From Thiorhodovibrio litoralis (lineage in GTDB: Bacteria; Pseudomonadota; Gammaproteobacteria; Chromatiales; Chromatiaceae): a stretch of 64,000 bases of DNA. The notes under the pieces are model-generated. The model ran no database searches and was not told where the DNA came from. It saw only the letters and a program-made list of their open reading frames with translations. Made by a program: the position numbers and the translations under genes. Positions 23,045-52,403 of the stretch are shown here, one piece after another. Within the stretch, counting starts at the first letter, position 1; the number at the start of each line of letters is the position of its first letter. The DNA lies in assembly GCF_033954455.1 (NCBI RefSeq), contig NZ_CP121473.1, positions 806,001 to 870,000 of the forward strand, given 5' to 3'.

Positions 23045-25746
23045 CACCAATCCTCCCGCACCGCCAGCACCGCGTCTTGTCGCATGGCCTGATTGCCGGC
23101 AACCCGCGCTGCGGCAGCAGCCAGCACCACCATGGTTGTCGCGAACAAGGTCAGCAGCACCACCGGCACCGCCAGCTCCATGCTCCAGTGGAAGCTCTGG
23201 CGGTTGATGACCTCGATCAGCACCCAGGCGATGCCACCGCCGGCGATCAGACCAACCAACACCGAGAGCAGGGCGCCGAGCGCCGCCTCCAGCCCCAGCA
23301 GCCGGCCGATGTCGCCCCGGTTGAGCCCGAGATGACGCAGAATGCCAAATTCCTTGCGCCGGCTGCTCGCAAGCGCGGCAAAGGTGGTGGCGATGCCGAA
23401 CAGGCCAATCAGCACCGCCACGCCTTCCATCAGATAGGTGACGAGAAAGGTGCGGTCGAAGACGGTCAGGATCATCGCGCGCAAATCGCCGGGCAGAATC
23501 ATCTCGCTGACCGAGTCGCCCAGGGCGGTGCGAATGCTGTGCATGATGGCTTCCGGATCGGCGTCTGGCGCGAGCATAAGTCCCAGGTCGTTGGTCAGGG
23601 TGTCGCCGCTCAGTGCGCGGTAGTCGTCCATGCGGATGACAATGGAACCGTGCTGGCGCGCGTAGTCACGCCAGATGCCTGCGATGGTGAAGGCGCGCAA
23701 GGTGCCGCCAAACGGCAGCTCCAGGCGATCGCCGACGCCGAGCCCACGCTGATCGGCCAGCGCCTCGGAGATCCAGGCCGGTGGCAGCGCATCCTCGCGC
23801 CTTTGCAGACTGCCGGCCACCAGCGGCAGGCCGCCAGCACCATCGACACGCCGCGCGATCAGACTGACTGCCGGCCCAACGTTTTCGAGCTGGCTGTTCG
23901 CGAATTCGCCGCTCTCTAGCTGGCTGTCGCCCTGCTGTTTATCTTTGCGCGAGCTGCGGTCTGGCTGACTGGGGGCAGCCCGGGCGCTATCGAGTCGGAC
24001 GCTGTCGAAGCGCACCGGATAAAGCTCCCACACGCCGGGCAGGGCGCGCACTTGCTCGACCTGATCGGGTGCGAGAAAGCCGCTGGCGCTGGCGTCCGAC
24101 GCGCGCAGATAGAGATCGGCCGGCAGCATGCGCGTGAGCCAGTCATCGACCGAGCCGCGAAAGGAATCGACCATCACCGCCATGGAGGCAGCCAGGGCGA
24201 CGCTGGCGACGACTCCAGCGCCAGCGACCACCGTCTGCCCGGGGGCGGCGGTGAGGCGCGCCTGCGCCAGCCGCGGAATGGGGCCGGCAGCAAACACCAG
24301 CCCAAAGCGCAGCCAGCCAAGCAGTCGTGTTACGCCTGGCAGGGTGAGGATGGCAGCGAGCAAAATCAGCAGCACCGCCAGATAGCCGAACACCGGAATG
24401 CCCCATACCGGCGGCAGGGTGCAGAGCAGCGCCGCCAGCCCGGCGCTGCCAAGCGCCAGGGTCCAGCGCGGACGGGCGCGATAGGCCTCGGCCTCATCTC
24501 CAGCTTTCAGCGCTTGTGCCGGGGCGGTGCGCGCCGCTTCCCGCGCCGGCAGCCAGGCACCGGCCAGGCCGGCTCCCACGCCAAGGGCGACATAACTCAG
24601 GGTGGCGAGCCATTGCCAGCTCAACTGCGGATTCAAGCCGCGAAAGAACCCGGCACCGAGATCCCCGCCGACGGCGGTGAAGGCCAGGGCCGCCAGCAGA
24701 TAGGCCAGTAGTGCGCCGATCAAGCCGCCGAGCAGTCCCAGCAGGGCACCCTCGGCCAGCAGACCGCGCCACAGCTCCGCGCGCGTCAGCCCCAGCGCGC
24801 GTAGAAAGGCCAGCTCCTGGCGCCGGCGCACCACCGCGAGCCACTGGGTGGAGAACACCAGAAAGCCGCCGGTGAGCAGCGCAATGGTGGCGAGCATGGT
24901 CAGATTGACGCGATAGGCGCGCGTCAGCCCGAGGGATTCGCTCGCGGCCTGTTCCGGCGGCAGCACAGTGAGACCCGGCGGGAGCTGCGCGGCAATGGCG
25001 GCGCGCGCCTGCGCCGGCGGCAGATTCTCGCGCAGGCGCAGATCGATGCGGCTCAGCACGCCAAGGCGGGAAAACTGCCACTGGGCCGCGGCGATGTCCA
25101 TCACCGCCAGTTCCTGCCCGACGCCGGCGGAGGGCACGCTACCGGCGACGCGCAGCCGGAGTTCCTCGGTGCCGGCCTGCAGGGTCAGACTGTCGCCGGG
25201 CTTGAGTTCGAGTCGCTCGGCGGCGGCCGGGCTCAGAAAAAGTGCATCCTCGCGCAGAGTCGCGAGCAGATCAGGGGGCGAGCGCCTGGCGTCGGACTGG
25301 GGAGCGTCGGGGTCCGGCGCTGGCTCTGACTCTGAATCTGACTTCGGCGCGTTGGCAACGTCGGCATTGGCAGGCTCGGGCATCAGCGCCGCATTCACCG
25401 CCGCCAGGCTGAGCACATCAACGCCAAGAATGCGCAGCGTCTCGCGACTGCCCGGCAGCCGCGCACTCAGCTCCAGCACCGGGCTGGCAGCGGCCACCTC
25501 CGGCAGCTCGGCAATAGCCGCGAACAGGGCATCGTCAAACCCACTCGCGCCCGCCAGCACTTGCAGATCCGCCTGACCGTTCAAAATCCGCACGCCGCGC
25601 TGAAACTCATCCAGAGCACCGCGATGGATCAGCTGCACCGCCAGCCCCAGCGCCACCCCGAGCGCAATCGCCAGCACCGACAGTGCCGTCGGCAGCCGTC
25701 GCCGCCACAGGCTGGCGAGAAACAGATGGCGCAGGGTGGCGGTCAT
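23044..25746 (-). CDS. FtsX/MacB-type ABC transporter permease (two-block, AttF/AttG-like)
   Basis: 900 residues from the ATG at 25746, preceded by GAGGG. There is one N-terminal membrane helix (ALSVLAIALGVALGLAVQ), a periplasmic domain, a first FtsX block (about 275-420), a middle helix pair, a second periplasmic region and a second FtsX block at the C-terminus (helices near 770-890). Such permeases work by mechanotransmission with a LolD/MacB-type ATPase, moving lipids, lipoproteins or peptides at the outer inner-membrane face. No ATPase gene is adjacent; the best candidate on the same strand lies at 43310-43987, across the accessory island. Translation is coupled to the AttH-like gene. Confidence 0.85.
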   Translation of the reverse strand: MTATLRHLFLASLWRRRLPTALSVLAIALGVALGLAVQLIHRGALDEFQRGVRILNGQADLQVLAGASGFDDALFAAIAELPEVAAASPVLELSARLPGSRETLRILGVDVLSLAAVNAALMPEPANADVANAPKSDSESEPAPDPDAPQSDARRSPPDLLATLREDALFLSPAAAERLELKPGDSLTLQAGTEELRLRVAGSVPSAGVGQELAVMDIAAAQWQFSRLGVLSRIDLRLRENLPPAQARAAIAAQLPPGLTVLPPEQAASESLGLTRAYRVNLTMLATIALLTGGFLVFSTQWLAVVRRRQELAFLRALGLTRAELWRGLLAEGALLGLLGGLIGALLAYLLAALAFTAVGGDLGAGFFRGLNPQLSWQWLATLSYVALGVGAGLAGAWLPAREAARTAPAQALKAGDEAEAYRARPRWTLALGSAGLAALLCTLPPVWGIPVFGYLAVLLILLAAILTLPGVTRLLGWLRFGLVFAAGPIPRLAQARLTAAPGQTVVAGAGVVASVALAASMAVMVDSFRGSVDDWLTRMLPADLYLRASDASASGFLAPDQVEQVRALPGVWELYPVRFDSVRLDSARAAPSQPDRSSRKDKQQGDSQLESGEFANSQLENVGPAVSLIARRVDGAGGLPLVAGSLQRREDALPPAWISEALADQRGLGVGDRLELPFGGTLRAFTIAGIWRDYARQHGSIVIRMDDYRALSGDTLTNDLGLMLAPDADPEAIMHSIRTALGDSVSEMILPGDLRAMILTVFDRTFLVTYLMEGVAVLIGLFGIATTFAALASSRRKEFGILRHLGLNRGDIGRLLGLEAALGALLSVLVGLIAGGGIAWVLIEVINRQSFHWSMELAVPVVLLTLFATTMVVLAAAAARVAGNQAMRQDAVLAVREDW

Positions 25747-25916
25747 GATTATCCCTCGCATGATAACAAGAGCAACTTGAGCATCCTTTGCGGGTCTTCC
25801 CGCCTGGTACTGACATATTGGTGCCGAGCGCAGCGCGGCAAGCTCTTCAACCTTCCAAAAAGCAAGCAGCGATCACGATCATCTCACTGATTTCCGACGT
25901 GCGTGTCGTCTAAAGG

Positions 25917-25966
25917 CTCATGGTCCCGGCCACCTCGGATGATGAAGCCACGGGATTCACGGCAGG
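25917..25966. repeat. Dispersed intergenic repeat, copy 2
   Basis: It starts CTCATGGTCCCGGCCACC and is the partner of 3393-3442. It lies in the 333-base gap between the ABC permease start and hipB, where no gene was found. Position and sequence suggest a relic of a mobile or repetitive element at the edge of the accessory island. Confidence 0.5.
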
Positions 25967-26364: not shown

Positions 26365-26386
26365 GCACCAAAACGGGCAAGCGCTG

Positions 26387-27758: not shown

Positions 27759-29096
27759 CTAAGATGTTTTCAACAACATCCGCAACCGACTCCATGCCTG
27801 CTTGCGCATGAACGGATCTCCTTCCAATGCTTCTAGACAAGAACTAAGATCCCCCGGAACGTCGTTCGCGGGCCAACCGAAGGGATCTCCTGTCAATGCA
27901 AAACGCAAACAGCGTCCGATCGAAAACCAGTCCATGCTGGGGGCCGGCGATACGCCCGGTTCGCGTTCGGGGGCGTCAAAGGGGGAGGCTGCGGCATCTT
28001 GACCGAGAGTGCTCACATCAAAAGCTGCCGCACCGAAAAAATCACATATACGAATGTCCTGCGGGGGTGATCCGGCAACCAGGATTGAGACCGGTTCGAT
28101 GTACCGATGTACCACTCCGGCTGCATGCACGGCATCCAAAGTATTCACGATCAAGAAAAAGAGCTTGCGACATCCACACCAATCCAGCGGTTGATCGTCT
28201 ACCAGGTCAGAGAGGGTTCGACGGGAGAAGAACTCGTTTACGAATACGGTCGCAGTTGGGGTGACCCTGTGATCATATAGTCGCAGAATGTTCGGAGTCG
28301 CTGTTTCTTGGAGCGATACCAAGTGGCTCTGGTGAGCTCTCATGACTGACTCCGCAGGTCGGTCAGCTGCGGTATATGGACAGACCTCGATCCGAACCCG
28401 CCTTTGCCTAGGCCGGTGCTGCACTCCAATGTATACGTCACGTGGCACCGGGCGTGGTCGACTCTCAAGCAGCTCGACCACCTCAAGGTCGCTGCTGAGA
28501 AAGCACGCAACGGGATTTTCCTCGGACAGGTGGCTGATCTCAAGGGCCGCAGCAAGCGCATCTGGGCTCGGGCGACGCTGGCGAAACTCTGCAGCGTCGG
28601 TGATCAGTGCATCCTCCAGTTCAGAAACCCTGCGAATCAAGAATCGTGCCCCTAGTGCGGTCCGTCCATGGAAGTTGGCGCCAAGCTGTGTGACGTCACA
28701 GGCGTCTGGAACAACGATGCATGACAGGACCTCCGGAATTGCATCTCCCGCACTTAGTCTGGAACTGACCAAGGACTCGGCAACCTTTGCCTTCTTGAAA
28801 GCGATGTCCAGTGGGTGAGAAAAGCCTTCCACGGGTATCCATCGGTCTTTGCGTTCATGTTCCCAGCCCGAGGCGCTATCACGGTATCGACCAGGCCACA
28901 ACTCCTTGGCATCGATCGTAACCAGCTTTCCGCACATCAGAACCAACAGGTCATGCTCGTTTGGCAGGCTGCGGGTAGGATGTGGGAGAATGAGATTATT
29001 AGTTACGATTCCATCGATTCGGTCGAAGCCGCCAATCGTCGCCAGAAGAAGGCGCTCGAAATGATTTTGTGGCACACGTGACGATATAACACGCAT
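27759..29096 (-). CDS. NERD-domain protein with C-terminal pseudokinase
   Basis: 445 residues. The N-terminal third has a nuclease-related NERD domain (HFERLLLATI, then EHDLLVLMCGKLVTIDAKE with the acidic and Lys residues of the fold). The C-terminal half, from about residue 225, resembles a protein kinase: DAVHAAGVVHRYIEP is the catalytic loop and RICDFFGAA the metal-binding loop. The usual HRD reads HRY, so the catalytic Asp is missing and the domain is probably a pseudokinase. NERD plus kinase also occurs in PglW of Pgl/BREX type 2 defence. It is the last gene of the island operon, 50 bases after the PP2C gene. Function is inferred only in outline. Confidence 0.68.
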   Translation of the reverse strand: MRVISSRVPQNHFERLLLATIGGFDRIDGIVTNNLILPHPTRSLPNEHDLLVLMCGKLVTIDAKELWPGRYRDSASGWEHERKDRWIPVEGFSHPLDIAFKKAKVAESLVSSRLSAGDAIPEVLSCIVVPDACDVTQLGANFHGRTALGARFLIRRVSELEDALITDAAEFRQRRPSPDALAAALEISHLSEENPVACFLSSDLEVVELLESRPRPVPRDVYIGVQHRPRQRRVRIEVCPYTAADRPAESVMRAHQSHLVSLQETATPNILRLYDHRVTPTATVFVNEFFSRRTLSDLVDDQPLDWCGCRKLFFLIVNTLDAVHAAGVVHRYIEPVSILVAGSPPQDIRICDFFGAAAFDVSTLGQDAAASPFDAPEREPGVSPAPSMDWFSIGRCLRFALTGDPFGWPANDVPGDLSSCLEALEGDPFMRKQAWSRLRMLLKTS

Positions 29097-29146
29097 ATTG
29101 AACCTTTTTGCCTGATTACCGCAAAACCCAAAAAAATAGTTGGGAA

Positions 29147-29797
29147 TTATCTGGGTGGTTTGACCAACAACAAAGTTGCATCATCCGTTCCAACAGTTTC
29201 AAGAGTCCACGAAATAATCTCTCCAGGCAAATCCATGGAGGGAAGCCGAAGAATATCGTCAGCACCGTCCGTTATCAGGGCCAAGCCAAGACAAGTATTC
29301 ATGAAGACATCGCTGCAATGGAATGTCCTTGACCTGATAGCAGGGGTGGAGAAACCCAACATGTTTGCGGGCGTGTATCCCCTTCTTGGAAGACCGCCTT
29401 CGATGATTGGTTTGGGCGCTGAAGCCTGAACTAGCCAAACTTTCGTGTCTCCGGCTTCAGCCACCTTGATGCGACCAGAACCTGCATTCCAGGAGATAGC
29501 AGCCGCAGCAGCTCCGAGTCGCCAAGCTTGCCCCTGGAAGCTCGTGCGCAATAGCTCCCCGAGTGAACTCAGTATTGCCTCGGGCTCTGAGCAGTTTGTG
29601 AAGGCATTGCCGGCGGCTTCAAAAATCGCCTCTCTTGGCCAGGGTGGGCGTGCCGAGGCTCGGCCAGGTGCACCATCTACAACGAGGGCCACCAATTGCT
29701 CTTCCAGAATCTTGACAAAAGCCAAGTCGCAGCGATCGACCGGCGCATTGGGAGAAGTCTGCCAAAGCCGCGCGCACCCTTCCCAACGATCACTCAT
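29147..29797 (-). CDS. PP2C-family protein phosphatase
   Basis: 216 residues from the ATG at 29797, which overlaps the end of the kinase frame by eight bases. The PP2C (PPM) marks are present in a divergent form: VDGAPGRAS for the first metal site, AGDTKVWLVQ, ALITDGADD and a final GTDDATLLLV. It would remove phosphates placed by the kinase encoded immediately upstream, a common kinase-phosphatase pairing. With that kinase gene broken, its present substrate is unclear. It is slightly shorter than usual for the family. Confidence 0.7.
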   Translation of the reverse strand: MSDRWEGCARLWQTSPNAPVDRCDLAFVKILEEQLVALVVDGAPGRASARPPWPREAIFEAAGNAFTNCSEPEAILSSLGELLRTSFQGQAWRLGAAAAAISWNAGSGRIKVAEAGDTKVWLVQASAPKPIIEGGLPRRGYTPANMLGFSTPAIRSRTFHCSDVFMNTCLGLALITDGADDILRLPSMDLPGEIISWTLETVGTDDATLLLVKPPR

Positions 29798-30107
29798 GCA
29801 AGATTTTCTCGAATATTCCAACGACTTCTTTCCAGCCAGAGGGCCGCCGGTCTGGCTCTGATTCAAGCAAGCGTCGGAGCACCTGGCCCAACCGCCTAGC
29901 ACTTGGGGCGCTCGAGGCCGCCATCTTTCGGGCAAGGCCACCCTGAATTTCGGTAGGAGTGTTAGGCAATGACAGTTCTGGTAGCCAAGACTCAAGCAAA
30001 ATCAATCCCATAGAGTACATGTCCCCTTGAGTTGTGCCAGGATAGCCGCTCCGGATCTCTGGGGCTTGGTAGGTGGCGCGCAGATCGAGATCGAGCTCAT
30101 CGACTAG
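29790..30107 (-). pseudogene. Protein kinase C-terminal part, separated by an IS insertion
   Basis: From the IS junction the minus strand reads VDELDLDLRATYQAPEIRSG, TTQGDMYSMGLILLESWLP, and ends LESEPDRRPSGWKEVVGIFEKI. These are the APE segment and the lower lobe of a Ser/Thr kinase. Joining this to the frame on the other side of the IS (after YSVLT) gives an uninterrupted kinase domain. A TAG-free short frame from the ATG at 30020 could still be translated but would lack the catalytic loop. Confidence 0.82.
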
Positions 30108-30109
30108 TA

Positions 30110-31321
30110 CCTCATTTCAGCTTAACTTGCGGATATAAGTGCTTCAACTTCACACGCGCTTTGTCGTTGGTGAATTGCCAGTCGACGCCGATTTGGGCCT
30201 CGTTGCGTTGTTCTGCCCAGGCGGCGGTTTCGCGGCGAAGCGTTTCGATATCGCCGATGCGGCGGTCTAGGCACTGCTTGGTCATGACACTGAGTTCGAT
30301 TTCGGCAATGTCCAACCAGCTGCCGTGCTTTGGTGTGTAGTGGATTTCCAAGCGCTCGATCAACCGCCGCGCTTCCTCAGGTGGGAAGGCTTTGTACAGA
30401 GAGGCGGGCGTATGCGTATTGAGGTTGTCCCAGACGATAACGACTTTCTCGGCGTCGGGATAGTCCACGTCCAGCAATGTCTTGATTTCTTGGGCTAAAT
30501 CGATCGCGGTTTTGGTTTCGCGCACACTGACTTTGCGCCATTGCCCCAAGGGTTCTGTGATCATGAAGTTCACCGCCGTACCGGCGCGCTCATATTCATA
30601 ATCGTAGCGTTCGGGTTGGCCCGGTTGCATCGGCAGGGGCTGGCGTGTCTCGGCAATCAACTGGGTCGGTTGTTCATCAATGCAGACAACTGGCTTCTTG
30701 GGGTCGTAGGGGCGGCGGTAGACCTCCAGGACATCTTCCATTTGCGCCACAAAGGCGGCGTCTTCCCCGGGGGGAATCACCCAGCACTTGCGCCGATGCG
30801 GTTGGAGTGCGTTTTTTTTAGTGCGCGCATCACCGTGGGTGCCGAGATGCTCTCAACGACATCCAGTTCCACCAACTTCCCCGCGAGTAAATTCAACGTC
30901 CAGCGCGCGTATCCGGGAGGCGGCTCGCTACAGGCAATTTGCACCAACCGCGCCTGCTTTTCCCCATCGAGCAGGGGCTCGCAGCTCGGGTGCTCACGTT
31001 GCTTGCGTGAAAGCGCCGCTTCAAATCCTTGTTCGACGAACCGCTCGCGAATGCTGAAGACAGTGCGCGGCGCGCAACCGAACGCCTCAGCGGCTTGTGC
31101 ATCGCTCCAATTCGCCCCTTCGGCATCGACCTTGAGCAATACATTCGCATGTTTGATCTTCTGCGCCGCCGCTTGCCCTTTGCTCACCAGGTCTTCCAAC
31201 AAACCACGCTCTTCATCGCTGAGACGGACTACATATTTCTTTGTCATAGCGGTATCTCCTTCTGCAATGCTCTAAGAGATACCACTAGCGGCTTGTTTTC
31301 GCAACATAAGCCGAAATAAGG
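30110..31321 (-). mobile_element. IS630-family insertion sequence, 1,212 bp
   Basis: The left end CCTCATTTCAGCTTA and the reverse complement of the right end CCTTATTTCGGCTTA are imperfect terminal inverted repeats (about 18 of 22 matching). The element is flanked by TA at 30108-30109 and 31322-31323, the expected target duplication. The original target would have read ACTAGTACTAGT, a palindrome. It contains one transposase read in two overlapping frames. Insertion is into the activation-loop region of the island's kinase gene. Confidence 0.92.
30112..31247 (-). CDS. IS630-family transposase, two frames joined by a probable -1 frameshift
   Basis: The first frame (31247 to 30777, 156 residues) holds the helix-turn-helix half: AAEAFGCAPRTVFSIRERFVE. 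The second frame (to 30112) holds the DDE catalytic half: CIDEQPTQ, VIVWDNLNTH and HGSWLDIAEIELS, with all three acidic residues. They overlap at a run of eight A residues (minus strand, 30812-30819), where a -1 slip fuses ALKK to NALQPHRRK and gives one protein of about 380 residues. Programmed frameshifting is known in IS elements; a plain mutation cannot be excluded. The stop lies inside the left terminal repeat. Confidence 0.88.
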
Positions 31322-31323
31322 TA

Positions 31324-33424
31324 CTAGTGTCAGCACCGAGTAGTCATCATGTGCAGCGAGACCAAGGTCGATCAATACAGTGGCCTCTGGGCGTCCGCCT
31401 GGAAGCATAAGATTGCGCGGGGCGATGTCATTGTGTACAAAACCTCGGAGACGTTCATCGATGGCGGCGAGTATCGAGCTGAGACGGAAGCCCAGCCGAA
31501 GAACGTCTTCCGAATACCAGGCAGTTTTTGACTGCGATTGGCCAAATATTTCGGCAAGCGTGAGGCCGTCGATCCATTCGCAGACTAATGCCTCATTGCT
31601 TGGGCGAGCGAGGAGCCTAGGAATACCCTCTACACCAAGAAGTTCCTCTAGCAAACGCGCCTCACGATCAAAGAGCCTATTGCTGGCCCGTTGGTCGCTG
31701 CTGATGGTGTCAAGTAATAGCGTATGCTTTAGCGCATGGCGCTCACCTGTATTATCGTCAAGTACTGGTAGTACAAGGGCAAAGCTTCCTCGTCCAATGT
31801 CGAGGTCGTGAAGTCGCGACCAACGACCGAAGAAATGCTTCTTGGCTAGGATGTTATGCAGATACTCTTCAGCCAAATCCGCACGCTCCCGACGAAGATC
31901 TAAGCTATCTGCATGACGCAGCCATTCGCAAAGAATGTGGTGCGCAGTCTTCAACTCCCCCTGTTTTTTGGCCGCCCTCGCCACGGCGATGCAACGACCC
32001 ATGCTGGGCGTCACCATGGGCTCAGAGGAATGTTGCTCAAGAACCCAACGTTCCACTTCCTCCCAATGCTCGAACAGCCAACTCGACGGCACTGCCCGGC
32101 CCAACACAGACCACGGAAGCACATCATTAGGAATTGCCGCGAGGCAGCGAAGAATCTTGTCGACGACAGCCGCAGAAGCTACTCCCCCGGGAGAATCTGG
32201 AACTAATCCCGCTGCAGAAGCCAATTCTGTCAACGCAAACTCGGGAGAGGGGAGTTCCCCGGTAGGTATTCGACGATTGATAAGATTTCCTAAAGCCGAG
32301 AGGCCTGAATCGGTCAAAATCGCAGCGAGCCTTTGGCTCTCCTGTCTTTGAACTAACCAAGCCGTCCAGATTTCATGCATCTCGCCTTCGTCCACCTCAC
32401 CGATATTGCAGGCAGCCTTTTCGGATGGGGAATGGACGGTGCCATTTATCATTTCCTCATCATCTTCATCATTAGTTTCGGTTCCCTGTTTCGACAATAG
32501 GGACCGCAAGGCGCTGTAGTTGAGCCCGACTGACTCGGATTCTGAGGCTACACTCTCTCGCCGGGTATCCTTGACGGGAAAACCTGCTTGGATCAAAAAA
32601 GAGTCTTTAGGAGATCCAGAGTTGGTTATCGTTGGCGGAGTCTCCATTGACGGGGATTCTTGAGGGCGTCCTTGTTTCCTTTTGGCAAATATTCCACCAA
32701 GCTGTTCGGAAGAAAATTGCCTCAGTTCCGCTACGGGTGTCACAGCTTCAGGGATTTCGCCAGAGAGGTTAGCGAACTCCTGAGCGCCGTTCGCCAATGC
32801 ATCGACCATGCATCGAGCATCATCAAGCGTTAATGGCTGCGACCACTCTGGACATCGATGCCCTGTTACACGACGGAAAACCTCCTCGACAGTCGAGCGG
32901 TTTTCTCCGTATCGAGTGCTCAGAATATGTAGCGAAACTACCGAACCAGCGCGCGTATGCAGGTTTTGCGAATCCTTGCGTTGCGCCGCGGCGGGGTTAG
33001 GTAGTGCGTCGACAATCCTTCTAGCATCATCTATATCTAAGGGGCTAGACCATTCAGGGCATTGCCGCCCCGTTAGCCGCTTGAATAGCTCTTCGATAGC
33101 TGTACGCTCAACGCGGTATGTTGAGCTCAGAACATGCAAAGATACCACTGAACCAGAGCGGGAAATCAAGCGATCAGTGTTCGCATTCATCTGTGGAGGA
33201 GCGGCTACCTGGTTGCTAGGTGATTGTTCGGCCTCAACATCAACAGCTCTCGCTTCATCTTTGCGGCAAGTTCCTTCTTGTAACCCCCCTGCGGGTGACT
33301 CTCGCGCTTCTGCCGTTAGAAGCTCCGTTTTGGGTAAATCGCACTCGATAATACCGCCCTTGCAAGTACGGTCTTGCAACGCTTCAACCATCCGTCTGGC
33401 ATCTTCAATTTCTAGTGAGTGTGT
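31324..33424 (-). pseudogene. Middle part of the S1/repeat/kinase gene: two repeats, helical region and kinase N-lobe, cut by IS630
   Basis: The frame continues from the TGA at 33425-33427 (first ATG at 33391) to the IS junction. It carries the end of repeat 2, then repeats 3 and 4 (SRSGSVVSLHVLSS, CPEWSSPLDIDDARRIVDAL and close copies), an acidic low-complexity stretch (NDEDDEEM), a helical region, and a kinase domain: DIGRGSFALVLPV (glycine loop), HALKHTLLL (Lys), FVHNDIAPRNLML (catalytic Asp kept) and VLIDLGLA (DLG for DFG). It then enters IS630 sequence after YSVLT. The domain is intact apart from the insertion, so the ancestral protein was probably an active kinase. Confidence 0.82.
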
Positions 33425-34189
33425 TCATTTAGGGCACTCACGTCCAGTTACTTGGCGAAAAGCTTGTTCAATAGAAGAACGCTCGATACCAAACCTTGCT
33501 CCCAAGACTTGCGGCGATACGACGAAACCCGTGCGAGAACGCAAAGGGTCAAACTCCAGTTTCGGCTCTTGTGGTAAGGACACTTCAACGCCCGGTCCGC
33601 AGAGCCCACTATTTGCAGTAGGTTCGACTTCGACCCGGTGCTTCAGTATGTCGACAATTCGGCGAGCAGATTCAATATCTAGGGGCTTGTTCGATCGCGG
33701 GACATCCGGCCCGATCTTCGCGCGGTAGAGCGTAACTACGTCTGATAAAGGCATAATGTGACGACTGCTTATGACGTCCAGCGACACGATACTCCCTGAT
33801 CGTGTGCGAAGCGGATCAAAAGGTGCGCCAGGAGGTTTCTGAAAAATACCATCACACTGCTCATTGAGCCCCCGGTATCTGCCGAACGAATTCCCCTCGA
33901 TATCTCTTAGCGAGAGCCTGAGTTGCAATCCCTCTCTCCGCCAAGTGAGCAACTCGGTAACGACTTCGCTACCATCAGGCAGATCGTCTATGCCCTCCAA
34001 GACACAAGCAAGCTCTGGCCGCGAAAGTTTGCCCACAAGACCTGTATCGTTAAGCTCAATAAATACGTCTGTGTTGTCTCGGCCGACCACACGCCCACAG
34101 GCAATCGACCCAACCTTCATTCCCCTCATATCTCTTATCGGCGGCAGGCGCTTGATAAATCGTGATGAAACGTGAGCCGAATCTGAGTC
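33425..34189 (-). pseudogene. S1-domain end plus first two 53-residue repeats, between a frameshift and an internal stop
   Basis: From about 34189 the minus-strand frame reads VDSDSAHVSSRFIKRLPPIRD and then MRGMKVGSIACGRVVGRDN. The first part aligns with VDREKAQVSLSIKQLRIDPL inside the upstream frame, so it is the end of an S1 domain whose beginning is in a different frame: one base has been lost near 34190. A further S1-like domain (residues about 5-80 from the ATG at 34129) and repeats 1 and 2 follow. Repeat 2 stops at RECPK-TGA where repeats 3 and 4 read CPEW, and the same frame continues after the stop. A protein starting at 34129 (234 residues) could still be made. Confidence 0.75.
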
Positions 34190-36687
34190 TACTGAAGAGT
34201 TTTTATTCGGACAATATCGTTCTTTGATAGTACTCCGGCGTCCTCTGGGATACCGTTACTGCGAAGAAACGCATCCAGCCCGGGGGATAGAGTCACGAAA
34301 AAGCCAGCATCGCAGACTGAAGAAATCCGGCCGGTTGCAAAACTGCCGGGAGGATATCTATCCGCAAGACATAACCATGGGTTCCGTAGAAGGTTCTTCC
34401 GACTCAAACCGATCCGCCGTCTTTCTATGTCAAAATCCTTAATTGTTATTCTTACATTCGCACCGATCTGAAAGAGATTTTTGGGATGCGGAGGCTGCTT
34501 TAGCCATGTCATTTCTGATACATGAAGCAGTCCTTCAACTTCGTTACATAATTCGATAAAAACACCAAAATCATTGATGTTTTTAACTTTTCCATTTAGG
34601 ATAGATCCCGCCGGAAACTCTTTAGCGAACTCCGCCAATGGGTCGATCCGCAATTGTTTAATACTCAAGCTAACTTGTGCTTTTTCTCGGTCGACGCTTA
34701 AGACCTGGACCTTTATTTTTTGTCCGGTCTTCAAAATCGCTTCAATATCCGTGCGGCCTTTTATTCGCGAGTAGCTGATTTCATTTTGGTGGAGCAGTCC
34801 GGTGATATTACCAATGCTTACGAAAGCTCCGTAATCGACAATAACTTTAACAGTACCAGTCAGAACATCGTCTTCGCAGATGTTATCTAGTTCCGCTTTG
34901 AGTTCTGAAGGCTGGAGAATATCCTGCGAAATAACTATATTCCGTCGATCGAGATCAAGTTTTATGATTCTAGCTGGAAAAACTTCGTTTATAAGTTCAT
35001 TTCTACGAGTTCTCCAGAACTGATCAGATCTAGAGCAAGGAAGAAACGCAGTGATTTGATCTAAGTCAACGAGCTTAAGTTGTTTACCGCGGGGTACGTC
35101 ATCAATCAATATTTCTGCTTTCCACCCACCTTTGACCACTGAGGTAACCCGCACTGTAATTGGCATGTCATTCTCAAAGCGGTACTGAAGAGTAGCAAAA
35201 AAAACCTCCGCCTCTTTCGTAAGAACCTTGATTAGTGGTAGAAGACCTCTTGGAGTGGCTACTGTGCCACGCAATATTGTCTCACGATCAACTACATGAG
35301 ATTTATCAGCAACAATCTGACTTGTGCATGCGCAATTTCCATCGTCTAGAGTGACTTCATTAGGAAAATCGTGCTCACCACTAAAGCTTAGGCGCGTTCG
35401 ACGTAATCGCCCCTCCGTTGTAACCTTCAGAGTCTTTAAATTGGCATCTGACTCAGTTACTCGGCCCCATATCCATCCGTATTGCTTAGGGGTATCGTTA
35501 AAGAGCCCTTGGCAGCCAAGCTCCCAAAGACATACGGATGGGAGCTGGTTCCAACTGGAAATATGTATTGGAATGCGCTTCCCTACTTCAGGAATGGCTT
35601 TCATCCACTTCAACGAAATATACGCCTCAAGCCCGAGAAGCACTACGCATCGATCATCATTATAGCCGATAACCTGCAAAGGAATCGGCACTCGTTTATA
35701 TGTATCTTTGTATGAACCGAGAAATGGAGCGTATTGATACCATAGTAACAAGCCGACTGTACGTTGATGACCAGAGCCAATCTCTACCATCATGCCCCGA
35801 TTTGTCATGGAAAGCGTGCGCGCCTCACAAATTATCATTCCAAGGGGATATTGCTTTTTGACTTGCTGCCACTCTGGATGGGTCGGACTCCTCAAGCAGA
35901 TGAAAACATCAGCGGTAGTCATGTCAACGGAGAGTCGCGCATCCAGAACTTCACCGCTTAGAGGTGTTTTGATTGAACTCCACCCGCGATCTTCTGGAAA
36001 TACTTGAGGAAACCATCCGAAGAGGTCAACTGTCCACTTGTCTGTGTCGGTTGTTGCAACTCTAACCTTGATGTCGGGTCGAGCACTGGCCAAGGATCGA
36101 AGCGAGTAAAGTCGAGCGGCAGACATTCCCCTAGGCAACGGCTCAACATGCGCGCATAACACAACAGGACTGCTTTGTGGATCGGAGACCTTGAGAGCTA
36201 GACTCTGACCAATAAAGGGATTGAGGTCTACCTGTAAGAATGAAGCAGGCCAAGGTAGGCCTGATCGATGCACTACGCCATCCTGCATCTTTTCTTTATA
36301 AGTGAATTGCCCCAACAGGGTATCGTGCTTTTGGTCATAGCGCGAAATTCTAAGAGAAACTGTTTCTCCTCTCGCTGGTTCTGCGGAATCGGTAGGCTGT
36401 TCCGGAAGATTCCACCGAGGATTGATTAGCGACCAACCGCCGCCGGTAAGGGGGAAAATAGCAACAAAGTGATCCGGCTCGACGCTATCAAATACGTTTT
36501 GGTCGATCAGAGTTTCTCGCCCGTCAGGTAGCAACACGACGCATTGTTCTTCCAAGGAGGTCAACACTCGGGCAATCGTGGGCTCTAAGGTTGACGCCGA
36601 GTGCGCCGAAGCATTCTCTCCCTTTTCATCATCGCTGTCTTCTTCTTCAGTAACTCCACCAAAGAGTTCCAAAAACTCGTCGCTCAT
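34189..36687 (-). CDS. Multi-S1-domain protein, N-terminal part of a disrupted larger gene
   Basis: 832 residues as it stands. Residues 1-40 are acidic; 40-490 have no recognised domain; from about 500 come S1 modules arranged like the central domains of ribosomal protein S1: KAEILIDDVPRGK to AFLPCSRSD, then GTVKVIVDYGAFVSIGNITGLLH, then GKVKNINDFGVFIELCNEVEGLLHVSEM, then a fourth cut off at VRIKTLQ by the frameshift. S1 modules bind single-stranded RNA and the ribosome. GC is low compared with the flanks. It may be expressed as a truncated protein or be part of a dead gene. The gene upstream ends 26 bases before its ATG. Confidence 0.72.
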   Translation of the reverse strand: MSDEFLELFGGVTEEEDSDDEKGENASAHSASTLEPTIARVLTSLEEQCVVLLPDGRETLIDQNVFDSVEPDHFVAIFPLTGGGWSLINPRWNLPEQPTDSAEPARGETVSLRISRYDQKHDTLLGQFTYKEKMQDGVVHRSGLPWPASFLQVDLNPFIGQSLALKVSDPQSSPVVLCAHVEPLPRGMSAARLYSLRSLASARPDIKVRVATTDTDKWTVDLFGWFPQVFPEDRGWSSIKTPLSGEVLDARLSVDMTTADVFICLRSPTHPEWQQVKKQYPLGMIICEARTLSMTNRGMMVEIGSGHQRTVGLLLWYQYAPFLGSYKDTYKRVPIPLQVIGYNDDRCVVLLGLEAYISLKWMKAIPEVGKRIPIHISSWNQLPSVCLWELGCQGLFNDTPKQYGWIWGRVTESDANLKTLKVTTEGRLRRTRLSFSGEHDFPNEVTLDDGNCACTSQIVADKSHVVDRETILRGTVATPRGLLPLIKVLTKEAEVFFATLQYRFENDMPITVRVTSVVKGGWKAEILIDDVPRGKQLKLVDLDQITAFLPCSRSDQFWRTRRNELINEVFPARIIKLDLDRRNIVISQDILQPSELKAELDNICEDDVLTGTVKVIVDYGAFVSIGNITGLLHQNEISYSRIKGRTDIEAILKTGQKIKVQVLSVDREKAQVSLSIKQLRIDPLAEFAKEFPAGSILNGKVKNINDFGVFIELCNEVEGLLHVSEMTWLKQPPHPKNLFQIGANVRITIKDFDIERRRIGLSRKNLLRNPWLCLADRYPPGSFATGRISSVCDAGFFVTLSPGLDAFLRSNGIPEDAGVLSKNDIVRIKTLQ

Positions 36688-36713
36688 ATTGGTGCTCCGA
36701 GACGGAGGTGATC

Positions 36714-38183
36714 TTAAGCCAAGGATGCAGCAGTGAAGATTCGATCCCAGGCGAGTTGAATCTCCTCAGCCAATCTCGGAGAACCTTTCTGAATCAAATC
36801 GAAGAGGACAGTACGTGCTGACGCTCCCGGGTCGAGTTCCAATGTTCCGAACGCGCGAACTACCCCGACACGCACATCTTCAATATCAGTATCGGAAAAT
36901 ACGGTCCAAAGAGAATCCGCAAGTTGAGGTGTTGCTGCACGGCGCAGCACCCCTAGCGCATCGAGCGCGCGCACCCGTTCGTCTGGCGACTTTTCGGAGT
37001 CTTGTGCAACGGCGAGCAGCCTAGGAGAAACAACAGATGCTAAGCGCCGAAGTAATTGGCGCTCGGGATCGGTGAGCGTGCCATCGACAACGGAATCAAT
37101 AAGGGCATCGACGTTGGCCTCTCCCCATTCAAGTTCCTGGTATCTTCTGAGGAAGGATTGGATCTCTGGGAGGGGGCGTCTTTTGAGCGCGGGCATGTGT
37201 TGCTCGACCATATCACGGACTGCTATTGCACCAGAATGGTTATGATTGTGCCCAGCCAAAGTTAGAAGCCCCCTTAATAGAAAACTAGTTGTTCGGGAAG
37301 CTTCAGCTGAATGAGCATCCTTGACAAAAGTGATCAGTGCATCGGTTGCCATAACACCGCCACGCATGATCATCTGCATCAGTAGGTGCTCGATTGGGCC
37401 ACGGCTAAGAGGATTTGCAGCGTGATCTAGCACAAGTTGCGGTACGATAGCGTCTCCGTAACATGCCAACGCTAACATTAGAAAACCCCGCGGCTCTTTT
37501 GTGTGATATCTTTCTAGGTACTCTCTATAAAGGACCCCCAGCGTTTGCTCATCCTTGCGAAAATCAGCCGCCAGTTTCGAAAACAGTTTTTTTGCCGCCT
37601 TGTGTTCCTCAGTATGAGATTCTTTCCTGGTCATTACATCAGTCAAGTAGGCGATTACCGGCTCGAGGAATTCCGTTTGATTTAGCACTATGACGCGCTC
37701 AGCAATCGATTGGCGCAGATCAGGGTAACCGCGCTCCAAGTCGGCAAGTTCTGTTATCTCGGCTTCGTCCACCGGGTCTACATGTCTGACGAGCCAAACG
37801 ATTCGTCGGACGTTGGGGAAGGGATGGACTTGTCGATCACGCAGGTCATCGCGAATAGTGCGCCGCCACTGTTCCCTGGGCGCATCTAAATAGCAACGGC
37901 GAATCATCCATACAACGTCGTCCTCTAGTCGGGATTCTGGCGGTATGCGCCAAGCGAGATCGAGCATTACTAAAGCGGTTTGAAGCTCACGCTTACGCCG
38001 TACCTGACGAAATAGGGATTCAATTCTGGTGCGCACAGGGGCATTCGGCGTCTTAGCCATGTCAACCAATGCCTTGCTGAATATGCGGCGTTGATGTGGA
38101 TGAACGTGCTCAGATGCCTTTCTGAGCTTAAGTATTCGAGCAATCTGATTACCGCGCTCCCGCGCAACCTTCCATTTGCTCAT
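36714..38183 (-). CDS. Alpha-solenoid (HEAT-like) protein of unknown function
   Basis: 489 residues, almost entirely predicted helical, in repeated pairs of amphipathic helices; the clearest HEAT-like unit is near the C-terminus (SPDERVRALDALGVLRRAA, VRVGVVRAFGTLELDPGASA). No catalytic motif was seen. The start ATG overlaps the Hsp70 stop (ATGA), so its expression is coupled to that chaperone and it is probably a scaffold or adaptor in the same complex. I do not recognise the family beyond the fold. Confidence 0.6.
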   Translation of the reverse strand: MSKWKVARERGNQIARILKLRKASEHVHPHQRRIFSKALVDMAKTPNAPVRTRIESLFRQVRRKRELQTALVMLDLAWRIPPESRLEDDVVWMIRRCYLDAPREQWRRTIRDDLRDRQVHPFPNVRRIVWLVRHVDPVDEAEITELADLERGYPDLRQSIAERVIVLNQTEFLEPVIAYLTDVMTRKESHTEEHKAAKKLFSKLAADFRKDEQTLGVLYREYLERYHTKEPRGFLMLALACYGDAIVPQLVLDHAANPLSRGPIEHLLMQMIMRGGVMATDALITFVKDAHSAEASRTTSFLLRGLLTLAGHNHNHSGAIAVRDMVEQHMPALKRRPLPEIQSFLRRYQELEWGEANVDALIDSVVDGTLTDPERQLLRRLASVVSPRLLAVAQDSEKSPDERVRALDALGVLRRAATPQLADSLWTVFSDTDIEDVRVGVVRAFGTLELDPGASARTVLFDLIQKGSPRLAEEIQLAWDRIFTAASLA

Positions 38184-39862
38184 ACCGGGGCTCCAGGCTC
38201 ATTTAGTGGGGGGAGTTGATGCCCGGTCCCGGTTACATCCCAGCCAGGAGCAGTTCCAACCGAGACATCGCCGCGAATCAATCGTCCTGTATTTGCTGAA
38301 AGATCCAGGCGTAGCTCTTGATCATCAGTCAGTTCAACCGTCAGTGAGATTGGGGTTTGGGCCGGAAGGATCTCAGGGAATGTCACAACCCGTCGGGCTA
38401 GGGGTGAAAGATCTGGTTCAGATTCCTCGGTTGTTGCTTGCGTACCCAGGTAGAGTTCGAGCTCCAACCGGTTATCAGGTCGCGGCATGAGGATGAGTGA
38501 AGGATGCTCAGTCGGCGGCATCGGAACCTCCTGCCGGAGGGGAACCAACTCCCGGAATTTATCCCGTGTAACCTTCAGGAATATCCCATCAAAAATGCGT
38601 TCGCGAACGTCGAAGCGACCGTCGCCGTAGCCAGCATCGAGACCGGCTTTCCAAGCTGCACCAAGCGCCACTGCAAACATTGGATCACGAATCATTGTCG
38701 GTTCTCGGCAAAAGATATGGTGCAACGCTAACTTAACGGGAGGTAAGGTCGCTGAACCCCCAGCCATCCAAACCTTCGTTACATCAAGTGGCCCAAGTTC
38801 AAGTTTTTCGTGGACCGATGCAGTATCCAAACTTTCTTGGATCGGTCGAAAGAATCCGAGTTCTGATCGACGTGCATCTGGGTCATCGACTCTGGGAAAG
38901 TATTCTTGTAATGCGTCGCGGAGGTCAGTCCCAGAGAACTCGGTGCGCCACTCCGGAACATATCCCAGTTCAGAGACATATACTGATTCAGAAATTGCAG
39001 CCCACCGTCCAGCGGGCTCATTCGACAGCACATCAGAAAGACGGTGTTTCAGATCCCGCGCTTTCTGCAAAAACAACCAACACAAGTACGTCCGGTCAGG
39101 ATCGCTTGTGATCAGGCTATCAAGGGAGCCGAATTGTTTTTCAAAACGGTTCAGCAATAATCCCGCGATATTGAGATCGAAATCATCACCTGCTATTTCG
39201 TTGTAACGTGACTGACCCACTACGTCGAAGATCGTCTGGTTTGCTTCTCTGTGCATCCTTACCAGAGAAACGTCTAGCGTGCCGCCTCCAATGTCTATTA
39301 CTGCATGTAAATCGTGTTTACTTTTGTCATTAGGTACGCCGGCACTGTGAAGTTCAGAAAGCAAAGCCGCCGTCGGTTCGTCAAAAAGCGATAAGGTAGT
39401 TGGCTCGAAGCCGGCCATTGCAGCAGCGGTCAATGTTGCCCGCCGCGCCTCGGTTCCAAAACAGGCAGGGATTGTGACGACGACCCGTTCCGGTGCTTGG
39501 CCATAGCTGCGGATGAGTTGATCGTGAACAATTTTCAATATGCAGGCAGATACTCGTTCTGGGGTCCAACCAACGCCACCGAATGTCCGAAACCAGTGAC
39601 GCCCCATGTAGCGTTTGACCGACGCCAAAGTCTGTGCGCCTTTGATAAGAGCTAACTGACGGGAAAAGGCGCCAACGTAAACTCTTCCATCAAAAAACGT
39701 CACTACTGAGTCCAGCAATGGTAAGGATCGTGAACCCGCCGGTGGAAAATCGTCGACTGGCTGGAAGATAGGCACAACTTCAGGGGAGGAAGAGTTTGAT
39801 TGCCAAACCGACAGCACCGTATTTGTCGTGCCAAGGTCTATCCCTGCGCAATAACGTGTCAC
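38180..39862 (-). CDS. Hsp70-family ATPase, divergent, apparently without a lid domain
   Basis: 560 residues from the GTG at 39862, which has GGAGGG six bases upstream and overlaps the previous stop (GTGA); a TTG at 39877 is a weaker start. Actin-like ATPase motifs are clear: GIDLGTTNTVLSVW, VVVTIPACFGTEARRATLTAA, VIDIGGGTLDVSLV and VWMAGGSATLPPV. After residue 430 a beta-rich segment resembles the substrate-binding domain, but the helical lid and an EEVD-like tail are absent. It is not the housekeeping DnaK: no grpE or dnaJ is adjacent. It sits second in the island operon and may activate or hold the other components. Confidence 0.85.
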   Translation of the reverse strand: MTRYCAGIDLGTTNTVLSVWQSNSSSPEVVPIFQPVDDFPPAGSRSLPLLDSVVTFFDGRVYVGAFSRQLALIKGAQTLASVKRYMGRHWFRTFGGVGWTPERVSACILKIVHDQLIRSYGQAPERVVVTIPACFGTEARRATLTAAAMAGFEPTTLSLFDEPTAALLSELHSAGVPNDKSKHDLHAVIDIGGGTLDVSLVRMHREANQTIFDVVGQSRYNEIAGDDFDLNIAGLLLNRFEKQFGSLDSLITSDPDRTYLCWLFLQKARDLKHRLSDVLSNEPAGRWAAISESVYVSELGYVPEWRTEFSGTDLRDALQEYFPRVDDPDARRSELGFFRPIQESLDTASVHEKLELGPLDVTKVWMAGGSATLPPVKLALHHIFCREPTMIRDPMFAVALGAAWKAGLDAGYGDGRFDVRERIFDGIFLKVTRDKFRELVPLRQEVPMPPTEHPSLILMPRPDNRLELELYLGTQATTEESEPDLSPLARRVVTFPEILPAQTPISLTVELTDDQELRLDLSANTGRLIRGDVSVGTAPGWDVTGTGHQLPPLNEPGAPV

Positions 39863-40992
39863 AGTTTCCCTCCACAAGCACAGGGTTCGATGGCAACGAT
39901 TCCGGGGATCAGCAACTCCCCTCTAAGGTTTACGCCCCGGCGCATGACTCTGACTTTTTGCAGACAATCGGTTGTGCCACGGCGAAAGGGGACCCCGGCC
40001 AGCTGCCAGGCAGGGTTAGGTAGCTTTATCTCAAGAACCGATGCCGGTTCCCCGAAGAATGTCAGATCATCGGTCAGGATTAAACGGCGCCAAGTGCGAA
40101 GTAGATCCTTTGCAAGTCCCTGTGCATCTTTTTCTGCGGCTGCGATCTCAATCGCCGGGTCTCCCCGGAGCACGAGAAATGGCTCCACAAGCACCGCCAG
40201 GACCTCATGCGGGAAATACCCAGTAACAGCGCCGTCACGTTTGGAAGACGAGTGTTGTTGTATATTCTCGCGCTCGGCGGTAGACGTTTTTGTCGAGAAG
40301 TTTTTGGTCGGCGTGGTTTGCTTTCGACTGCGTGCCATAACCAAAAAATTGAGAGGAAGAGATAATTTATCGGTATTTAGAGAGGATGTGGTGGGTACTT
40401 CGCTCCAGCTTCTTCGAGACAACGGCCGCCACATGACATGGAAGGCAACCCGGTAGCGGCCCTTGGGTGTTGTGGCTGCATTCCCCGCCCACGCCATGAG
40501 TTCATCAACGAGCTCAGAGGCAGCGTTAGGGATGTTTTGATCCGAGTCAAAACCGAGAGCCCCCTGACTTGGGCTTGCCCGCCGCCTGCCACGTCCAAAC
40601 AGTGAGAAGCCATTGACCAAGTGAACCAGTGCGGCGGAGAGCCTTGGTAGACCCAAATCATCCTCGAGGTTCACGGGTTCGCGGCGCAAAATGTTCGCGA
40701 GATAGCCGACAAATTGCTGGCGAGGTTCGTCGGCGTTAAGGCCCAGCTCTGTTGAGAAGTCCTGCCATCGTGCATCGTCCACATGAAACGGCAGGTTTTC
40801 ACGGCCAGCGAAAACAGTTGTTGCCAAAGGATCGCCGTACAGAAGATTTCCCAGCACAGCAAGCAGCAGCGACCATGCAAGCTCTTCACGTGCAATGGAG
40901 GTTGGCTGAGCGCTGTCCTGATCGTACCACGGAGAAGGTAGATTCCTGAGTTCGCTCTGCAATAAGCTGTCCACTATCGGGCTGGCATTCAC
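39859..40992 (-). CDS. Unknown protein, first gene of the island operon
   Basis: 377 residues. The N-terminal 200 residues look helical (AREELAWSLLLAVLGNLLYGD); a Ser/Thr/Lys/Gln-rich linker follows (residues about 225-255, RSRKQTTPTKNFSTKTSTAE); the C-terminal 120 residues look alpha/beta (GYFPHEVLAVLVEPFLVLRG, DLTFFGEPASVLEIKLP). It ends CACGGKL, with two cysteines. No known domain was recognised. It overlaps the Hsp70 start by four bases, so the two are probably functional partners. There is no signal peptide or membrane helix. Confidence 0.6.
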   Translation of the reverse strand: MNASPIVDSLLQSELRNLPSPWYDQDSAQPTSIAREELAWSLLLAVLGNLLYGDPLATTVFAGRENLPFHVDDARWQDFSTELGLNADEPRQQFVGYLANILRREPVNLEDDLGLPRLSAALVHLVNGFSLFGRGRRRASPSQGALGFDSDQNIPNAASELVDELMAWAGNAATTPKGRYRVAFHVMWRPLSRRSWSEVPTTSSLNTDKLSLPLNFLVMARSRKQTTPTKNFSTKTSTAERENIQQHSSSKRDGAVTGYFPHEVLAVLVEPFLVLRGDPAIEIAAAEKDAQGLAKDLLRTWRRLILTDDLTFFGEPASVLEIKLPNPAWQLAGVPFRRGTTDCLQKVRVMRRGVNLRGELLIPGIVAIEPCACGGKL

Positions 40993-43265: not shown

Positions 43266-43309
43266 CGGTGGGGCTGCTTGCCGGGGTGGAGCTCGATGTT
43301 CCTTCACTA

Positions 43310-43987
<678 letters not shown>

Positions 43988-44217
43988 GATGGCATCAAGT
44001 GGCTCGGTGTGAATATCTGGCAGCTGGGTTGCCGCAACCGTCGCAGTCTGCGGGCCTTCGGCATGCTGCCATGTTACCCTTCCCGCGCGATGCGCGGGGT
44101 TCTGAATTGGGCGAGACTGGCGCGAGCCGTGGTGTCGCGCTTGCAAACCCTTCCGGAATTGTGACCGTGCCACTTTGTCGTCCAATGATCCGAAGCACCC
44201 ACAAAAGGTGATCGCTC

Positions 44218-49716: not shown

Positions 49717-50709
<993 letters not shown>

Positions 50710-52399: not shown

Positions 52400-52403
52400 A
52401 GGC

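What the first reader, a model, noticed from the sequence alone, without database searches (positions are those of the whole stretch)
27759..40992. Six-component Hsp70 / alpha-solenoid / S1-kinase / PP2C / NERD-pseudokinase operon, not recognised as a described system
One minus-strand operon combines an unknown protein, a lidless Hsp70, a HEAT-like protein, a giant S1-domain kinase, a PP2C phosphatase and a NERD-pseudokinase. Starts and stops overlap at unknown/Hsp70, Hsp70/solenoid and kinase/phosphatase, so the set evolved as a unit. Kinase plus phosphatase gives a reversible switch; S1 modules point to RNA or the ribosome; NERD and kinase recall PglW of Pgl/BREX defence. A stress- or phage-triggered control of translation or RNA is a reasonable hypothesis. 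The genes and overlaps are seen; the joint function is inference.
Basis: partly seen in the sequence, partly recalled or inferred. Interest (0 to 1): 0.85.

Follow-up and report, generated by a model that had tools for sequence, protein, structure and literature searches.

The report
Foreign chaperone-kinase operon with broken kinase
A block of foreign DNA in a bacterium with nitrogenase genes carries an undescribed set of genes (a chaperone, a helical scaffold, a ribosome-like RNA-binding kinase, a phosphatase and a nuclease-pseudokinase) that looks like a defence or stress switch, but in this genome its kinase gene is broken.

Summary
The gene set is real but not as described. An unknown protein, a lidless Hsp70, a HEAT-like protein, an S1-domain array closest to ribosomal protein bS1, a PP2C-like protein (by motif) and a NERD-pseudokinase lie on the minus strand, with 4-base overlaps at the three junctions named. 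The "giant S1 kinase" is not one gene here: its frame changes near 34190, a stop interrupts it at 33425-33427, and a 1222-bp IS630-type element (12 near-identical copies in this genome) splits the kinase domain. The operon is a low-GC block (46-56% against 62-66% around it) between two transporter genes that are adjacent in 4 of 6 relatives examined.
The HEAT-like protein was found in this genome only among 210 of the order; Hsp70 (398 and 369 genomes, strict cut-offs) and NERD-pseudokinase (359) likewise. Conserved linkage of this exact set is therefore untested. Two plasmids, from Priestia and Klebsiella, carry a related layout behind a beta-CASP RNase: unknown, Hsp70, HEAT. No described system matched.
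Best guess: an acquired defence-type switch, kindred to the NERD/pseudokinase/kinase module of PglW, aimed at ribosomes or RNA and now decaying.

The parts
39859..40992 (-). A: unknown protein, 377 aa, GTG start; first gene of the operon
   Evidence: ORF; no significant Pfam, NCBIfam, PADLOC or PDB match; AF2 single-sequence pLDDT 34, not usable
38180..39862 (-). B: lidless Hsp70 with intact ATPase signatures and a beta-type substrate-binding domain
   Evidence: Pfam HSP70 8e-36; PDB DnaK 2.1e-31; start GTG overlaps the stop of A; signatures and lack of a lid read from the sequence
36714..38183 (-). C: HEAT-like all-helical protein, 489 aa
   Evidence: HEAT_2 0.0045, below cut-off; HEAT-ARM_XIII 4.2e-6; AF2 27 helices, no strand, pLDDT 54; ATGA overlap with B
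34189..36687 (-). D: S1-domain array, N-terminal piece of the broken S1-kinase gene
   Evidence: S1 1.3e-36; aa 539-807 align with bS1 118-387, E 5.4e-68
33425..34129 (-). D2: second piece, in another frame: one S1-like domain (by eye) and the first two copies of a ~56-aa repeat; ends at an in-frame stop
   Evidence: no PDB match
31327..33391 (-). E: third piece: further repeats, linker and the N-lobe and catalytic loop of an apparently active kinase domain
   Evidence: Pkinase 2.9e-6, profile 6-147, below cut-off; PDB CaMKII-type kinases 3.8e-5
30105..31326 (-). IS630-type insertion element (two transposase frames, 26-bp inverted ends 22/26, TA at both ends) inside the kinase domain
   Evidence: DDE_3 5.2e-23; ends; 12 full-length copies at 99-100% in this genome, this one included
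29794..30104 (-). C-lobe of the kinase domain, cut off from its N-lobe by the element
   Evidence: Pkinase 4.2e-4, profile 162-254, below cut-off
29147..29797 (-). F: PP2C/SpoIIE-like phosphatase, 216 aa, ATGA overlap with the kinase
   Evidence: SpoIIE 0.011, below cut-off; ordered motifs VVDG, AGDTKVWL, ITDG, TDDAT read from the sequence (motifs recalled)
27759..29096 (-). G: NERD nuclease-like domain plus pseudokinase, 445 aa
   Evidence: Pkinase 1.6e-13, NERD 0.0072; MAD6 model 2e-12 over aa 28-404; PglW 1.3e-11 over aa 46-395
43310..44185 (-). One partner of the insertion site: ABC transporter ATPase
   Evidence: ABC_tran 3.6e-36; directly beside the permease gene in 4 of 6 relatives examined
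23044..25761 (-). Other partner of the insertion site: FtsX-type permease
   Evidence: FtsX 8.7e-31

Best explanation
A horizontally acquired, defence-type (possibly growth-arresting) switch that is now decaying. SHOWN: a low-GC operon inserted between two transporter genes, with its kinase gene broken by a frame change, a stop and an insertion element. INFERRED mechanism of an intact copy: Hsp70 (B), the helical scaffold (C) and protein A form an ATP-driven sensor/assembly core. The bS1-derived S1 array brings the kinase to ribosomes or mRNA. When the core detects disturbed or foreign translation or RNA, the kinase is released and acts on the NERD-pseudokinase (G), as the active kinase beside the NERD/pseudokinase pair in PglW and some DndF proteins may do, switching on the NERD nuclease and/or phosphorylating translation proteins. 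The PP2C-like protein (F) keeps the switch off or resets it. In the present host this signalling route should be dead, because no intact kinase gene remains at this locus.
For: GC of the operon genes 46.5-55.5% against 65-70% for the adjoining AAA gene, ABC ATPase gene and permease stretch. The transporter genes flanking it are adjacent in G001, G023, G024 and G025. C was found only in the own genome among 210 of the order and 142 relatives. D is closest to bS1. NERD, pseudokinase and active kinase are one protein in PglW and some DndF (PMC12839542, passages seen); here they are two genes of one operon, and MAD6 and PglW models match G across NERD and kinase. Hsp70 plus HEAT-like modules are parts of CoCoNuT Type III systems, predicted to target RNA (PMC11090510, passages seen). 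Two plasmids carry unknown-Hsp70-HEAT behind a beta-CASP RNase. A nearby SNF2 helicase gene matches DpdE/ZorD defence models. Breaks.
Against: No second copy of this set, so linkage through evolution is untested. No complete known defence system was seen among 28 flanking ORFs scanned with Pfam; the wider context is nitrogenase, dnaX, recR and min genes. The SNF2 gene is shared with G001 and G002, so it is probably not part of the acquired block. A and C show no significant similarity to the plasmid counterparts. NERD, HEAT and both kinase halves are below Pfam's cut-offs; PP2C has only weak support. No evidence for contact between any two products.
Confidence: 0.35

Rival explanations
1. A stress-response or translation-control module, not defence: Hsp70 and the S1 kinase tune ribosomes during heat or starvation, and NERD-pseudokinase is only a scaffold.
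For: bS1-derived array; ATPase-competent Hsp70 by signature; no complete defence system among 28 flanking ORFs.
Against: Found only here among 210 genomes of the order, low GC and an inserted position fit an accessory, mobile function better than housekeeping; NERD plus pseudokinase otherwise recalls defence proteins.
Confidence: 0.25
2. A variant of the plasmid-borne unknown/Hsp70/HEAT clusters of Priestia and Klebsiella, in which the RNA-acting effector is swapped: beta-CASP RNase there, S1-kinase/PP2C/NERD here.
For: Same order unknown-Hsp70-HEAT; the two plasmid sets are related to each other across phyla, 27-44% identity in the four main proteins; B aligns with the Priestia Hsp70 over 545 aa including the region behind the ATPase domain; weak C-terminal profile signal for B, 0 of 500 shuffles against 41-125 of 500 for four other Hsp70s.
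Against: That profile score is only 3.1 bits; A and C are not significantly similar to their positional counterparts; similarity of B to ordinary DnaK is of the same size (127 bits for a Streptomyces DnaK against 123 for the Priestia Hsp70).
Confidence: 0.3
3. A chance or composite pile of foreign genes in decay with no joint function.
For: Three breaks in the central gene; no other copy of the set found; GC varies within it, 46.5% in D to 55.5% in G.
Against: Three 4-base start/stop overlaps, one strand, gaps of 26 and 50 bp at two other junctions (coordinates), all genes but the kinase open.
Confidence: 0.1

Closest known systems
PglW of Type-2 BREX, DndF of DndFGH, MAD6 (NERD-kinase proteins)
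   Same: NERD domain followed by a pseudokinase, with an active Ser/Thr kinase as partner; G matches MAD6 and PglW models across NERD and kinase (architecture of PglW and DndF from PMC12839542 passages; that of MAD6 was not checked)
   Different: Here split into two genes with a PP2C gene between; the active kinase is tied to an S1 array; no PglX, PglZ or BrxC among the ORFs scanned
CoCoNuT Type III (CnuD Hsp70-like plus HEAT-like repeats)
   Same: Hsp70 NBD/SBD unit with a HEAT-like helical part, RNA-directed theme (PMC11090510 passages)
   Different: No McrB GTPase or McrC among the ORFs scanned; Hsp70 and HEAT are separate genes here; the Hsp70 ATPase signatures look intact, whereas CnuD Walker-A-like motifs are described as degenerate
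Unnamed beta-CASP/unknown/Hsp70/HEAT clusters on Priestia megaterium pNCT2_2 and Klebsiella grimontii pNY3A
   Same: Gene order unknown-Hsp70-HEAT; rare, on mobile or foreign DNA
   Different: beta-CASP RNase and two small proteins instead of S1-kinase, PP2C and NERD-pseudokinase; A and C not demonstrably homologous
Ribosomal protein bS1
   Same: aa 539-807 of D align with bS1 118-387 at E 5.4e-68
   Different: Part of a larger, broken gene that ends in a kinase domain

Membership tests
BREX Type 2 / Pgl | PglX methyltransferase, PglZ and BrxC/PglY in the locus | tested here: not met
   No such Pfam match among 28 flanking ORFs, nor in the operon; not every ORF of the window was scanned
BREX Type 2 / Pgl | PglW: NERD, pseudokinase and active kinase in one protein | tested here: not met
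   The parts are present but in two genes
CoCoNuT | McrB-type GTPase and McrC homologue | tested here: not met
   None in the Pfam scans
CoCoNuT | Hsp70-like unit with HEAT-like repeats (Type III) | tested here: met
   as separate genes, HEAT by weak matches
MADS (methylation-associated defence) | MAD6 above NCBIfam cut-off and partner methyltransferase | tested here: not met
   46.5 bits against a cut-off of 460; no methyltransferase in the scans
beta-CASP/unknown/Hsp70/HEAT plasmid clusters | Orthologous unknown and HEAT proteins | tested here: inconclusive
   No significant match, but only two sequences were available and both diverge fast
beta-CASP/unknown/Hsp70/HEAT plasmid clusters | beta-CASP RNase gene at the head of the cluster | tested here: not met
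   None in the Pfam scans
Hsp70 chaperones | ATPase signatures and beta-type substrate domain; helical lid | tested here: inconclusive
   ATPase domain met (signatures read from the sequence); the protein ends soon after the beta domain, so no room for a lid

The most novel reading that the evidence does not exclude
A new class of mobile defence switch: a kinase carrying a mimic of ribosomal protein bS1 rides on ribosomes or their mRNA, is gated by a private Hsp70/HEAT chaperone core, and on infection fires a NERD nuclease through a pseudokinase, with a phosphatase as the safety catch. It would be one branch of a wider family of Hsp70/HEAT-centred systems with exchangeable RNA-acting effectors, the beta-CASP plasmid clusters being another.
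Probability: 0.2. Interest if true: 0.85.

Novelty: new variant of a known kind. Interest (0 to 1): 0.5.

Why it matters
Defence modules that watch or attack translation are of wide interest. A bS1-like array fused to a kinase, together with its own chaperone, phosphatase and nuclease-pseudokinase, would suggest a signalling route from ribosome to nuclease. The side finding may reach further: unknown/Hsp70/HEAT clusters on plasmids of two phyla, headed by an RNA-type beta-CASP nuclease, form a small family with no name in the libraries searched here.

Tried and rejected
A as a GrpE-like exchange factor: suggested by its C-terminal strands, but its score against a profile of four GrpE proteins was no better than shuffled sequence (136 of 300 shuffles reached it; for the Priestia unknown 43 of 300; the Klebsiella one gave no match).

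A as homologue of the plasmid 'unknown' protein: the top hhalign stretch was C-terminal but not significant; whole A gave no match and its C-terminal piece was reached by 19 of 500 shuffles. C against the plasmid HEAT profile: 23 of 500 shuffles. C against PDB: one chance-level match (0.078).

The ~56-aa repeats as IF2_N domains: 29 of 300 column shuffles reached the score. No convincing PDB match for the repeats (best E 0.47).

F against a PP2C protein next to T6SS genes in Mesorhizobium: 21 bits only.

Structures: A (pLDDT 34) and C (54) were folded without an alignment and were too poor for a fold search, so none was run.

Wider hunts without a true relative: genome contigs (the single hit L007 lies on the strand opposite a 403-aa ORF, and no Hsp70 is among the ORFs of 200 aa or more there, by my reading); viral contigs, six scans, none with a relative; plasmids with A, C and the N-terminal 490 aa of D, no match, with D only ribosomal-S1-type matches in the 20 of 104 rows seen, with G and E only kinase regions; E. 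coli genomes, no match with the Klebsiella cluster or with the window's B-C stretch; phages with B, 20 records, the 12 listed covering only the ATPase region; A1 profile in 299 genomes, none, with no positive control. In some searches only the top 3-4 first-look candidates per genome were scored. The genome sets overlap. All are of one phylum.

Papers: five searches aimed at this set or its parts listed none that describes it; one search showed 15 of 1,005 papers. One search looked for MADS and listed nothing relevant. Only the held open-licence library was searched.
Full report
What is there. On the minus strand, 40992 to 27759, lie A (unknown, 377 aa), B (Hsp70), C (HEAT-like), an S1/kinase gene, F (PP2C-like) and G (NERD-pseudokinase). 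A/B, B/C and kinase/F overlap by four bases; C is 26 bp from the S1 gene and F 50 bp from G (coordinates).

The kinase gene is broken. The S1 array (34189-36687) ends at a stop that, by eye, falls just before the end of an S1 domain. The next piece (33425-34129) is in another frame and begins with an S1-like stretch (by eye; no significant Pfam match and no PDB match). That piece ends at an in-frame stop inside the second of four ~56-aa repeats. The same frame continues in 31327-33391 with two further repeats, a linker and a kinase N-lobe. A 1222-bp element with 26-bp inverted ends (22 of 26 alike) and transposase domains of IS630 type sits at 30105-31326 inside the kinase domain. The two sides match Pkinase positions 6-147 and 162-254, each below Pfam's cut-off on its own. 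The element has 12 full-length copies at 99-100% identity in this genome, the present one included, so the insertion is probably recent (inference). Sequencing error could explain the frame change or the stop, but hardly the insertion.

What the proteins look like. B keeps the Hsp70 ATPase signatures (GIDLGTTNT, DIGGGTLDVS, GGSATLPP; read from the sequence, motifs recalled), matches DnaK structures (2.1e-31) and ends soon after a beta-type substrate domain. D matches ribosomal protein bS1 best: aa 539-807 with bS1 118-387, 5.4e-68; the NCBIfam rpsA models agree, below their cut-offs; its first 490 aa match nothing in Pfam or plasmids. The kinase in E keeps catalytic Asp and Asn (HNDIAPRNL) and a DLG motif (alignment). 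G's kinase lacks catalytic Asp and Asn (HRYIEPVSI; alignment), so it is a pseudokinase; its NERD part is weak in Pfam (0.0072), but MAD6 and PglW models match across both domains (2e-12; 1.3e-11). F has the PP2C motif order but only a weak SpoIIE match (0.011) and no PDB match. C is predicted all-helical at low confidence (pLDDT 54). A is unresolved (pLDDT 34).

Foreign origin. The operon genes are 46.5-55.5% G+C, while the adjoining AAA gene (65.4%), the ABC ATPase gene (65.5%) and the permease stretch (66-70% by kilobase) are richer. The ABC ATPase (43310-44185) and FtsX permease (23044-25761) on either side are adjacent, with 25-135 bp between matched parts, in G001 (same genus) and in G023, G024 and G025. 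They are not adjacent in G002, and in G006 no ATPase match lies in the 19 kb upstream of the permease. Thus 4 of 6 relatives examined show the empty arrangement. In the family sample the permease itself was found in 5 of 24 genomes, own included. A HipA-family gene (26324-27601) and an AAA gene (41679-43307) also lie between the transporter genes, but with host-like G+C (63-65%).

Distribution. C: 1 of 142 relatives and 1 of 210 genomes held for the order, 168 of them at least 90% complete and at most 5% contaminated, own genome only. B: 1 of 398 genomes of the phylum at E<=1e-45 and 1 of 369 of the class at E<=1e-33, own only. G: 1 of 359 at E<=1e-10, own only. In some searches only the best 3-4 candidates per genome were scored, the samples overlap, and only one phylum could be reached.

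Surroundings. Pfam scans of 28 flanking ORFs (one ORF was scanned twice) show ordinary chromosomal genes: transporters, sensor proteins, nitrogenase, dnaX, recR, min genes. Four flanking proteins were also scanned with PADLOC: the SNF2 helicase gene at 45957-49556 matches DpdE (1.4e-190) and ZorD (6e-105) models, HipA has one weak match (1.6e-4), and the AAA protein and the 606-aa protein have none. The SNF2 region is shared with G001 and G002, so it is probably older than the insertion; whether it belongs to a defence system was not followed up.

Related clusters. tblastn of B against plasmids (201 records matched; four places opened) led to Priestia megaterium pNCT2_2: beta-CASP/RMMBL nuclease, unknown 476 aa, Hsp70, HEAT protein, two small proteins. 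Its Hsp70 led to Klebsiella grimontii pNY3A with the same order; there the Hsp70 is annotated as two overlapping ORFs. Nuclease, unknown, Hsp70 (two pieces) and HEAT proteins of the two plasmids are 36, 27, 44/37 and 34% identical. Only these two plasmid records match the Priestia Hsp70 at E<=1e-40, and the profile of the two unknown proteins hit 0 of 299 genomes (no positive control). The Priestia nuclease is nearest to the aCPSF1 and Cas14 beta-CASP models, below their cut-offs. PADLOC gave only weak matches for the ten cluster-region proteins scanned (best 9e-8). B aligns with the Priestia Hsp70 over 545 aa at 25%, but ordinary DnaK scores as high; a C-terminal profile test favours a specific link only weakly (3.1 bits; 0 of 500 shuffles against 41-125 of 500 for four other Hsp70s). 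A and C show no significant similarity to their positional counterparts.

Literature. CoCoNuTs (PMC11090510; passages read) include Hsp70-like units with HEAT-like repeats in Type III, proposed to target RNA, with degenerate Walker-A-like motifs. A 2026 BREX survey (PMC12839542; passages read) describes PglW and some DndF proteins as NERD, inactive kinase and active kinase in a row, with the nuclease as a possible suicidal back-up effector. A 2020 survey (PMC7159879; passages read) describes Hsp70 and PP2C/kinase themes in GTPase-centred conflict systems. None of the passages seen describes this set, and the listings of five searches of an open-licence library showed no paper that does.

Interpretation. 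The window holds NERD, pseudokinase and active kinase as in PglW, but split over two genes with a phosphatase between; the active kinase is tied to a bS1-like array and preceded by an Hsp70/HEAT pair. The most likely reading is an acquired defence-type switch aimed at ribosomes or RNA, now decaying in this host. Shown: insertion, composition, gene content, breaks. Inferred: defence role, the partners of the kinase, the triggering event. The chief weakness is that the set is known from one broken copy.

Noticed in passing
L012 6612-14868 (Priestia megaterium pNCT2_2) and L016 7897-16887 (Klebsiella grimontii pNY3A): Cross-phylum plasmid cluster of beta-CASP nuclease, unknown protein, Hsp70, HEAT protein and two small proteins; in Klebsiella an integrase gene lies just before it. 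Only weak PADLOC matches and rare among plasmids.
   Followed up: partly
window 45957-49556: SNF2 helicase gene matching PADLOC DpdE (1.4e-190) and ZorD (6e-105) models, overlapping a 606-aa protein gene (44218-46038) without a Pfam match; region shared with G001 and G002 but not beside the ABC ATPase there.
   Followed up: no
window 25913-25962: A ~50-bp stretch matching 21 places in the same-genus genome G001 and 2 in G002 (rows): a dispersed repeat.
   Followed up: no
window 26324-27601 and 41679-43307: HipA-family gene and an AAA ATPase gene share the insertion site with the operon but have host-like G+C; matches to the HipA region also occur elsewhere in G001 and G002.
   Followed up: no
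G000:C1, 12 places: IS630-type element in 12 full-length copies at 99-100% identity: recently active in this genome.
   Followed up: partly
window 49822-55481: Nitrogenase genes (NifH-family, two component-1 type proteins, FeMo-co protein): the host probably fixes nitrogen.
   Followed up: no
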